A DNA stretch of 64,000 bases, taken from Gammaproteobacteria bacterium (GTDB lineage: Bacteria > Pseudomonadota > Gammaproteobacteria > Xanthomonadales > Wenzhouxiangellaceae). The translations under genes were made by a program, and so were the position numbers. This document shows, piece after piece, positions 10,581-15,327 of the stretch. Position 1 is the stretch's first letter. The number at the start of each line of letters is the position of its first letter. The notes under the pieces were generated by a model. That model was given only the letters and a program-made list of their open reading frames with translations. It was not told the DNA's origin and ran no database searches. Where the stretch lies: contig JAJFKY010000016.1 of the NCBI GenBank assembly GCA_021772975.1, positions 124,001 to 188,000 on the forward strand, given 5' to 3'.

Positions 10581-12866
10581 ATGCTGAATAATATTAGCCT
10601 TGTTAGAAATGTCGGAAAATTTGATTCTGTAAATGCAGGAGCAAATCTTGATCTAAATAAACTCGCCCTGATTTATGCAGAAAATGGTCGAGGAAAAACA
10701 ACGCTTGCAACAATATTACGTTCTCTGGGCGACAAAGAGCCACTACCAATTATTGAACGCACGAGGCTTGGCGGTCAGGGCGAGCCGCATATAGTAATCG
10801 CTCACAATAATGGCGACACAGCGATGTTTCAGCAAGGTGCGTGGGATGATAGCGATGTAAATATTCTAGTATTTGATGATAGCTTTGTTGCAGATAACAT
10901 TTATTCAGGGATAGATGTAGATACCGAGCACCGACAAAAATTACATGAACTCATTATTGGCGCAGAAGGTATTGCTCTCAATACAGTTCTTCAACAGATT
11001 GTTGCTAGAATTGAAACACATAACCAAGCTATTAGAGAGAAGGGAGCGCGTATTACAGCGGTAATGCGCTACGGATTAAGCGTTGAAGCATTTTGCGCCC
11101 TAGAAGATATAGAGGGCATAGATAATCTTCTCCAAGAAGCAGAAAGGGCTTTAGCCGCTGCAAGAAAATCGGAAGCTATCGCACAAAGGAACTCGTTCAT
11201 ATCCTTATCCCTGCCTGATTATGATTTGGAAGTCCTAAATACATTACTTGCAAAATCTCTTCCCGATATTGAGACTGCATCAGCAGAGCAAGTAAACGAG
11301 CATATCGCCAGCTTTGGTGAAAGGGGTGAAAGCTGGGTTGCCGCAGGTATGAAGGTCGTTACAGAGAATGATTTGAGTGATTGTCCGTTTTGTAAGCAGG
11401 ACTTGTCGGGATCAGACATTGTTGCTCACTATCAATCAATATTCAGTCAGGAATATTTGGCACTCAAAGAAGAAATATCGACTTCCCTATCAGACTTGGA
11501 AAGGGATCATCGCGCCGAGCTTATGACTGCGTTTGAGCGCAATGTTCGTACCCTCACCGAGAATCGCCAGTTTTGGTCGGAGTTTATAGATATCCCTGAG
11601 ATTGATCTGGATACGGCTTTGGTTACTCGGTTATGGCGATCATGCTTTGATGGCATTAAAGCGGCGTTAGATGCCAAAAAAGAGTCACCGCTTGAGGCAT
11701 TTACTCTTAGTCAAGAAATCCTCGATCTAGTTAACGAATATCGCGCTGCTAGAACCGCCGTACATGAATTGAGTAATTCTTTGGTAGCCGTGAATGAAAG
11801 GATAGAGCTTCTTAAGGAAAGCGCTTTGGAATCAAATGTTGCTGCGCTTGAAGCCGACCTAAATGGATTAAAAGCCGTTAAATCACGATATAGCGATGCC
11901 GTGTTAGCTCTTTGCGACGATTACCTTGCGGAAGTGGCTCTTAAAACGGCAACCGAAGGAGAACGGGATCAGGCTAGAGCTGCGTTAGATCAATATCGTG
12001 AGCAGGTATTTCCTCGATATCAGGACGCGATCAACAGGTATTTGGTGAAATTTAATGCAGGATATCGTTTGGAAAATGTGAGTTCTGTGAATAATCGTGG
12101 AGGTTCCAGTTGCAGTTATAGTGTGCTGATAGAAAATACTCCTGTTCCGTTGAGAAGCAATCAGGCAGGTCAGCCATCATTCAAAACCACATTAAGTTCG
12201 GGAGATAGAAACGCATTAGCTTTGGCATTCTTTTTTTCTTCACTCGAAATGAATGCCAACAGAGCAAATATGATTGTCGTTATAGATGACCCAATGACAA
12301 GTTTGGATGATCATAGGTCGCTGACGACGAGGCAGGAGATAAGAGCCTTGTTGGTTGAAGTTGATCAGGTGGTAGTGCTTTCGCACTCTAAAGCCTTTCT
12401 ATGCGGATTGTGGAACAGCACGGATAACACATTAGTTTCTTCCATGAAGATTTCGCGTTCCGGTTCAGCTTCAACATTATCCGAGTGGAATGTAGATCAA
12501 GACAGTATCACCGAGCATGATCGTAATTATCTAATGGTCAGTGAGTTTATTGAGAACGGTCATGGGGCTAACGAGCGTTCTGTAGCAGTAGCATTAAGGC
12601 CAATATTAGAATCTTATGTTCGTATTACTTGTCCGAGCATATTTCCACCCGGCTCTCTACTTGGCCCGTTTCTTGGTATTTGTCAACACAGAGAAAATAC
12701 ACCGAATCAAATATTATCGCCTGATGATCGTACAGAGCTTCGCGCGCTCTTAGATTACGCTAATGATTTTCATCATGATACAAATCCGGCTTGGCAAACA
12801 GCGAATATTAATGAACAAGAGCTTCTTGATCACGCAAGACGGACAATAGCTTTTGCAAGCATATAG
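10581..12866 (+). CDS. AAA/ABC-type ATPase of the AAA_13 (RloC/PrrC-like) group
   Basis: Walker A LIYAENGRGKTTLATIL; CPFC zinc-hook motif in predicted coiled coil; ABC signature LSSGDRNALALAFF; Walker B MIVVIDDPMTSLDD; H-loop VVVLSHSKAF; C-terminal RPILE and ANDFHH. Confidence 0.85.
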   Translation: MLNNISLVRNVGKFDSVNAGANLDLNKLALIYAENGRGKTTLATILRSLGDKEPLPIIERTRLGGQGEPHIVIAHNNGDTAMFQQGAWDDSDVNILVFDDSFVADNIYSGIDVDTEHRQKLHELIIGAEGIALNTVLQQIVARIETHNQAIREKGARITAVMRYGLSVEAFCALEDIEGIDNLLQEAERALAAARKSEAIAQRNSFISLSLPDYDLEVLNTLLAKSLPDIETASAEQVNEHIASFGERGESWVAAGMKVVTENDLSDCPFCKQDLSGSDIVAHYQSIFSQEYLALKEEISTSLSDLERDHRAELMTAFERNVRTLTENRQFWSEFIDIPEIDLDTALVTRLWRSCFDGIKAALDAKKESPLEAFTLSQEILDLVNEYRAARTAVHELSNSLVAVNERIELLKESALESNVAALEADLNGLKAVKSRYSDAVLALCDDYLAEVALKTATEGERDQARAALDQYREQVFPRYQDAINRYLVKFNAGYRLENVSSVNNRGGSSCSYSVLIENTPVPLRSNQAGQPSFKTTLSSGDRNALALAFFFSSLEMNANRANMIVVIDDPMTSLDDHRSLTTRQEIRALLVEVDQVVVLSHSKAFLCGLWNSTDNTLVSSMKISRSGSASTLSEWNVDQDSITEHDRNYLMVSEFIENGHGANERSVAVALRPILESYVRITCPSIFPPGSLLGPFLGICQHRENTPNQILSPDDRTELRALLDYANDFHHDTNPAWQTANINEQELLDHARRTIAFASI

Positions 12867-15327: not shown

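What the first reader, a model, noticed from the sequence alone, without database searches (positions are those of the whole stretch)
10581..15327. Two-gene AT-rich insert: RloC/PrrC-like ATPase next to an HD-Hsp90-like ATPase, a candidate conflict/defence system
Two large ORFs, same strand, 22 bp apart, sit between a conserved SDR gene and ettA. Their codon composition is visibly AT-richer than both flanks, suggesting horizontal acquisition. Gene 1 combines an SMC/ABC-type ATPase, a CPFC zinc-hook motif and a C-terminal region with candidate tRNase-type residues. Gene 2 combines an intact HD triad with a complete Bergerat ATPase. RloC-type proteins are known stand-alone anticodon nucleases; I do not know of a characterised system that pairs one with an HD-GHKL partner. 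The operon-like spacing implies joint function: a nuclease effector plus a chaperone-like or nucleotide-hydrolysing regulator.
Basis: partly seen in the sequence, partly recalled or inferred. Interest (0 to 1): 0.85.

Follow-up and report, generated by a model that had tools for sequence, protein, structure and literature searches.

The report
Mobile RloC tRNase plus HD–Hsp90 pair
A horizontally acquired two-gene cassette pairs a Rad50-like tRNA-cutting enzyme of the RloC type with a predicted nucleotide-destroying HD–Hsp90 protein; relatives of the second gene elsewhere sit beside other DNA-sensing ATPases, so this looks like an anti-phage module built around a fixed effector with exchangeable sensors.

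Summary
Two same-strand ORFs 22 bp apart (761 and 812 aa; GC3 0.35/0.43 against 0.58–0.71 in neighbours) form a 5.27-kb insert exactly between convergent SDR and ettA genes, which almost abut in a same-genus genome. Gene 1 is RloC-like: Walker A, CPFC hook, ABC signature and the R-x3-E…H nuclease triad are invariant in 16 relatives. Gene 2 is HD-CE fused to an Hsp90-type ATPase; its HD and Bergerat residues are invariant in essentially all of 55 homologues. Gene 2 is absent from 99 relatives.

Orthologous pairs occur in only a handful of contigs, so RloC+HD–Hsp90 is not a fixed system. Gene 2 homologues from many phyla are, however, often directly preceded by other ABC/SMC/OLD-type ATPases (11 of 13 close upstream genes). 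The nearest gene 2 relative (87%) has an unrelated LmuB-like partner. Two other cassettes in the same genome share the insert's end sequences, one of them carrying PARIS.

Best reading: a mobile anti-phage module in which a Rad50-like DNA sensor/tRNase is coupled to a nucleotide-hydrolysing HD effector switched by an Hsp90 ATPase. Function is inferred, not tested. RloC is known; HD-CE/HSP90 immune modules have been predicted (Nicastro 2023, recalled). New variant of a known kind.

The parts
10438..10524 (+). Left end element (LE), 56 bp upstream of gene 1; similar sequence at the left of other cassettes in the genome
   Evidence: 84% identical to L123:1995-2081; partial copies at L137 and in sister-genome loci L135, L138, L140
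10581..12866 (+). Gene 1: RloC-like Rad50-type ATPase with C-terminal anticodon-nuclease/HEPN-type domain (761 aa)
   Evidence: AAA_13 6.8e-42; PADLOC PDC-S06 4.5e-70; JGI names its ~53% homologues 'wobble nucleotide-excising tRNase'; structure model matches Rad50/SMC/Lamassu LmuB
10677..10703 (+). Walker A (AENGRGKTT) of gene 1
   Evidence: K39 invariant in 16 homologues
11382..11393 (+). CPFC zinc-hook motif at the apex of the coiled-coil insert
   Evidence: C268 and C271 invariant in 16 homologues; helices on both sides, low confidence at the apex
12192..12386 (+). ABC signature (LSSGD), Walker B/D-loop (IDDPMTSLD) and switch His602
   Evidence: invariant or nearly so in 16 homologues; this stretch aligns with PrrC in hhalign
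12597..12776 (+). R673-x3-E677-x54-H732 triad of RloC/PrrC type
   Evidence: invariant in 16 homologues; PrrC proteins show LR-x3-E...SH at the same place
12889..15327 (+). Gene 2: HD-CE fused to Hsp90-type ATPase (812 aa)
   Evidence: HD-CE 2.2e-56, HATPase_c_3 4.3e-8, HtpG 1.5e-21
13063..13848 (+). HD-CE domain (residues 59-320); metal-ligand candidates H64, H68, H103, D104, H180, H214, D249
   Evidence: conserved in 53-55 of 55 homologues
13993..14538 (+). Hsp90 N-terminal (Bergerat) ATPase (residues 369-550): E398, N402, D405, D442, G444, G446, G487, G489, T540
   Evidence: all invariant in 55 homologues; matches solved Hsp90 N-domains
15363..15493 (+). Right end element (RE), about 36 bp after gene 2
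   Evidence: 80% to L123:3002-3133; 82% to the right flank of a PARIS cassette (L137/L124); copies in the sister genome
10356..15624 (.). Whole insert relative to the same-genus genome G001
   Evidence: SDR and ettA stops about 9 bp apart in G001 (L125), 5.27 kb apart here

Best explanation
This is a mobile, two-gene anti-phage (abortive-infection type) module. Gene 1 is an RloC-type protein: a Rad50-like ABC ATPase with a zinc-hook coiled coil that senses DNA ends or aberrant DNA structures during infection, fused to a HEPN/PrrC-type tRNase. Gene 2 is an HD phosphohydrolase that destroys nucleotides (pool depletion), held in check and released by an Hsp90-type ATPase switch in the same chain. 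On infection the gene 1 ATPase engages DNA, cuts tRNA anticodon loops, and directly or indirectly triggers gene 2, so translation and nucleotide supply are attacked together. Shown here: domain content, conserved active sites, gene order and spacing, horizontal mobility, partner exchange, and shared cassette ends with a PARIS cassette. Inferred: DNA-end sensing, tRNA and nucleotide substrates, anti-phage function, and physical coupling of the two proteins.
For: RloC-type motif set invariant in 16 homologues; model closest to Rad50/SMC/Lamassu. Published RloC needs linear DNA and its ATPase to switch on its tRNase (PMC3874168; PMC2610378). HD and Bergerat residues invariant in essentially all 55 gene 2 homologues from many phyla, so both activities are under selection. 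Of 13 large same-strand genes ending within 60 bp upstream of a gene 2 homologue, 11 are ABC/SMC/OLD-type ATPases; the other two are type III R-M methylases. Pfam tally: 15 of 32 adjacent genes are ABC/SMC/OLD-type against about 3 of 81 other genes of the same loci (Fisher p about 1.5e-7). The partner changes inside a 100/100 clade: window and L004 have RloC-like, L003 has LmuB-like. Many partners carry their own nuclease triad or TOPRIM. Insert ends shared with a PARIS (AriA/AriB) cassette in the same genome.
Against: No functional data. More than half of gene 2 homologues have no adjacent ATPase, so gene 2 can probably act alone. Gene 1's wider family also stands alone. Orthologous pairs are few. 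E-x54-H is just outside the published RloC range. The HD substrate is unknown. The gene 2 model has low confidence over the Hsp90 domain. One partner (L003) has no evident nuclease domain.
Confidence: 0.5

Rival explanations
1. Two independent defence genes travel together in one cassette without acting in one pathway: an autonomous RloC-like tRNase and an autonomous HD-Hsp90 effector.
For: Both families exist alone. Orthologous pairing is limited to close relatives. RloC is reported to have an internal switch and to need no partner (PMC3874168).
Against: Gene order and spacing are too regular: the ATPase comes first, 16-54 bp upstream, same strand, with several unrelated ATPase families. R-M methylases, the other close upstream genes, are themselves parts of multi-gene systems.
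Confidence: 0.25
2. Gene 2 is a dedicated regulator rather than an effector: the Hsp90 part chaperones or silences the gene 1 tRNase, and the HD part clears a signalling nucleotide.
For: Hsp90-type N-domain with intact ATPase residues. PrrC is silenced by a linked R-M complex (PMC2610378), so a linked regulator has precedent.
Against: Gene 2 is the conserved part and occurs without any ATPase or tRNase nearby. Partners are unrelated ATPases with different nuclease domains (TOPRIM, HEPN-like) or none evident, so a chaperone specific for one toxin fits poorly.
Confidence: 0.2
3. A housekeeping-type DNA-damage or stress response module of no defence relevance.
For: Rad50-like ATPase and Hsp90 domains occur in housekeeping proteins. 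Two related cassettes carry non-defence cargo.
Against: Absent from 99 relatives, AT-rich insertion; neighbours of gene 2 homologues include type III R-M, PglZ and OLD-type genes; a sister cassette holds PARIS.
Confidence: 0.05

Closest known systems
RloC (and PrrC) anticodon nuclease; COG4694-like, PADLOC PDC-S06
   Same: Rad50-like ABC ATPase with CxxC hook insert and C-terminal R-x3-E...H triad in gene 1
   Different: RloC is described as stand-alone; here it is followed at 22 bp by an HD-Hsp90 gene. E-to-H spacing is 54 rather than 36-52 residues.
HD-CE / HSP90-coupled nucleotide-targeting immune systems (Nicastro et al. 2023, NAR, gkad879; not held here, content recalled, citation seen in PMC12839542)
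   Same: Gene 2 is an HD-CE domain by Pfam and is fused to an Hsp90-type ATPase, the arrangement I recall being predicted there
   Different: I could not check whether that work lists RloC-, LmuB- or OLD-type ATPase partners; the partner exchange is shown here from sequence.
Lamassu (LmuA/LmuB/LmuC)
   Same: SMC/Rad50-like ATPase coupled to a separate effector; some gene 2 partners (L003, L006, L008) match PADLOC LmuB best
   Different: No LmuA or LmuC here; gene 1 matches PDC-S06 far better than LmuB; the would-be effector is HD-Hsp90.
PARIS (AriA/AriB) and OLD/Gabija
   Same: ABC/OLD-type ATPase plus nuclease; OLD/AriA-like ATPases precede Bacteroidota gene 2 homologues; a PARIS cassette in this genome shares the insert's end sequences
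   Different: Neither has an HD-Hsp90 component.

Membership tests
RloC anticodon nuclease | Rad50-like ABC ATPase motifs (Walker A, signature, Walker B/D-loop, switch His) | tested here: met
   K39, S539, D569/D570 and H602 invariant in 16 homologues; Foldseek Rad50/SMC
RloC anticodon nuclease | CX2C zinc hook within a coiled-coil insert | tested here: met
   CPFC 268-271 invariant, flanked by long helices
RloC anticodon nuclease | C-terminal Arg-X3-Glu-X36-52-His triad, Ser often before His (PMC2610378) | tested here: inconclusive
   R673, E677 and H732 invariant, but spacing is X54 and the residue before H732 is His, not Ser (Ser only in L009)
RloC anticodon nuclease | tRNA anticodon cleavage / wobble-nucleotide excision, triggered by linear DNA and ATP | not testable with these tools
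   needs biochemistry
HD-CE / HSP90 nucleotide-targeting module | HD-CE domain above Pfam gathering score with intact HD metal residues | tested here: met
   191.9 bits against cut-off 27; H64, H68, H103, D104, D249 conserved in 53-55 of 55
HD-CE / HSP90 nucleotide-targeting module | Hsp90-type Bergerat ATPase in the same protein | tested here: met
   residues 369-550 match solved Hsp90 N-domains; all key residues invariant
HD-CE / HSP90 nucleotide-targeting module | Nucleotide hydrolysis on activation | not testable with these tools
   needs biochemistry
Lamassu | LmuB plus LmuA effector (with or without LmuC) | tested here: not met
   gene 1 best PADLOC match is PDC-S06 (4.5e-70) against LmuB 3.2e-17; gene 2 is not LmuA-like and no other gene lies in the insert
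Named multi-gene system in PADLOC 2.0.0 | both genes matched as parts of one system | tested here: not met
   gene 2 has only a 0.0028 match to a type II restriction enzyme model over its ATPase part
DefenseFinder-named system | match to a current DefenseFinder model set | not tested
   library not available

The most novel reading that the evidence does not exclude
HD-Hsp90 proteins are the constant effector of a widespread plug-in immune class, in which unrelated Rad50/SMC/OLD-type ATPases (RloC-like, LmuB-like, AriA/OLD-like) are exchanged as upstream sensors in front of the same effector gene; the window's version adds a tRNase, making a double translation-plus-nucleotide attack.
Probability: 0.35. 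Interest if true: 0.7.

Novelty: new variant of a known kind. Interest (0 to 1): 0.5.

Why it matters
If true, it links two immune logics not known to me as a characterised pair: DNA-end sensing by Rad50-like RloC ATPases, and nucleotide-pool attack by HD effectors. It would also give a natural swap experiment, since nearly identical HD-Hsp90 proteins (87%) sit behind unrelated ATPases, and it would make the role of Hsp90-type switches in bacterial immunity directly testable.

Tried and rejected
Orthologous pairing as a general rule: rejected; of 58 genome loci with gene 2 only L004 has an orthologous gene 1 next to it. WonAB as the closest system: rejected, it is OLD-ABC plus a PD-(D/E)xK nuclease. 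Structured RNA in the insert: no Rfam match. Viral origin: no gene 2 relative in viral contigs and only HtpG-like or weak matches in phage records; plasmid records hold no near-full-length gene 2 homologue. Integron attC sites as the cassette ends: considered by eye, the core-site consensus did not hold in the second copy; not tested formally. The HD-CE literature search found nothing usable in the held library; the key paper is known only as a citation. A second viral-contig pattern scan for the right end found nothing; the first failed on the server.

Full report
What is there. The window holds two + strand ORFs, 10581-12866 (761 aa) and 12889-15327 (812 aa), 22 bp apart with a plausible ribosome-binding site between them. 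They are AT-rich (GC 0.43 and 0.41; GC3 0.35 and 0.43) in surroundings of GC 0.53-0.62 and GC3 0.58-0.71. In the same-genus genome G001 the flanking SDR and ettA genes are convergent and about 9 bp apart; here 5.27 kb lies between them. Gene 2 is absent from all 99 sampled genomes of the genus, family and order, and gene 1 at E<=1e-60 appears in only 2 of 386 other genomes sampled from the class. Horizontal acquisition is therefore well supported.

Gene 1. It matches Pfam AAA_13 (6.8e-42) and PADLOC's single-gene candidate PDC-S06 (4.5e-70), and homologues at about 53% identity are called 'wobble nucleotide-excising tRNase' by JGI. In an alignment of 16 relatives, including distant ones, the following are invariant: Walker A K39, both CPFC cysteines, S539 of the signature, D569/D570, H602, and R673, E677, H732. 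PrrC proteins fetched from other genomes show LR-x3-E…SH at the corresponding place (read by eye; the profile alignment itself covers only the ATPase part). The published RloC definition is R-X3-E-X36-52-H with a CX2C zinc hook (PMC2610378); the spacing here is 54. The structure model (mean pLDDT 79) is closest to Rad50, SMC heads and Lamassu LmuB. So gene 1 is an RloC-like protein by sequence; tRNase activity is untested.

Gene 2. It matches HD-CE (2.2e-56, far better than the inactive iHD-CE model) and an Hsp90-type HATPase. Across 55 homologues from Pseudomonadota, Bacteroidota, Bacillota, Nitrospirota, Acidobacteriota and others, H64, H68, H103, D104, H180, H214, D249 and all Bergerat residues are conserved, the few exceptions at the HD motif being gaps or one broken copy. 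Both activities are thus under selection. The model's HD half is confident, its Hsp90 half is not, although Foldseek still finds Hsp90.

Is the pair a system? Others of gene 1's near relatives, such as one at 84% on a 575-kb contig, show no matching gene 2. More distant gene 1 homologues on plasmids stand alone, three of five beside R-M genes. So 'RloC plus HD-Hsp90' is not a fixed system.

The class-level pattern is stronger. Of 13 large genes that end within 60 bp upstream of a gene 2 homologue on the same strand, 11 are ABC/SMC/OLD-type ATPases: RloC-like/PDC-S06 (L004, L009, L043), LmuB-like (L003, L008) and OLD/AriA-like (L019, L024, L026, L028, L039, L040). The other two are type III R-M methylases. 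By Pfam, 15 of 32 adjacent genes are of this class against about 3 of 81 other genes in the same loci (Fisher p about 1.5e-7). The control count is approximate because the tally lists only the commonest families, and the 15 combine Pfam with homology to seeds chosen among the neighbours; AAA_23 alone gives 11 of 32. On the gene 2 tree the partner label changes 12 times, including within a 100/100 clade made of the window, L004 (RloC-like) and L003 (LmuB-like, gene 2 87% identical). Many partners carry their own nuclease signature, an R-x3-E…H triad or OLD TOPRIM; L003 has none evident. More than half of the gene 2 loci have no such adjacent gene, some of them because the contig ends, so gene 2 can probably act alone or with unlinked partners.

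Mobility. Sequences just outside the two genes recur. The left element (10438-10524) and right element (15363-15493) also flank an AraC+VOC cassette (L123), a PARIS cassette (L137: AriA-like 453 aa, AriB-like 319 aa, AriB 2.7e-27) in the same genome, and two regions of the sister genome (L135, L138). In each case they face the same way with 1 to 5 kb between them. This looks like a non-autonomous cassette whose moving machinery I did not identify. That a sister cassette carries PARIS adds to the case for defence.

Mechanism and standing. Published RloC is switched on by linear DNA and its ATPase and disables tRNA. HD-CE domains are, as I recall from Nicastro et al. 2023 (not held; citation seen), predicted nucleotide-degrading effectors, some coupled to HSP90-type modules. 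Putting these together, the best reading is a DNA-sensing ATPase/tRNase in front of an Hsp90-switched nucleotide hydrolase. Since the HD-Hsp90 gene is the constant part and the ATPase the exchangeable part, I favour HD-Hsp90 as effector and the ATPases as sensors. Rivals are two independent genes in one cassette, or gene 2 as regulator of the tRNase. Function, substrates and coupling are inference.

Noticed in passing
window 10438-10524 and 15363-15493; L123, L137, L135, L138: Shared left and right end sequences frame cassettes with different cargo (this pair, PARIS, AraC+VOC) in this genome and its genus sister; the mobilising mechanism is unknown.
   Followed up: partly
L137:3277-5609 (own genome, C8 about 47-50 kb): A PARIS-like AriA/AriB pair (AriB 2.7e-27) lies next to phage-like genes (a P-loop replication-type protein and a small terminase-like protein, judged by eye) and carries the same right-end element as the insert.
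   Followed up: partly
window 15556-15592: A 35-bp hairpin repeat (GTCGGCTTA...TAAGCCGAC) with at least a dozen copies in the genome, REP-like; its CGGCTTACGA core also occurs in the left end element.
   Followed up: no
L022 and L033: HD-Hsp90 genes embedded between type III R-M methylase and Res genes, with a PDC-S06-like gene just upstream: a four-gene arrangement found in two Bacteroidota genomes.
   Followed up: no
L058:5343-7733 (-): A gene 1 homologue (27%) with the R-x3-E...HH triad sits convergent to an HD-Hsp90 gene 54 bp away, so adjacency can also occur in opposite orientation.
   Followed up: no
L031 and L023: HD-Hsp90 genes near a PglZ (BREX-type) gene and near a reverse transcriptase gene.
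   Followed up: no
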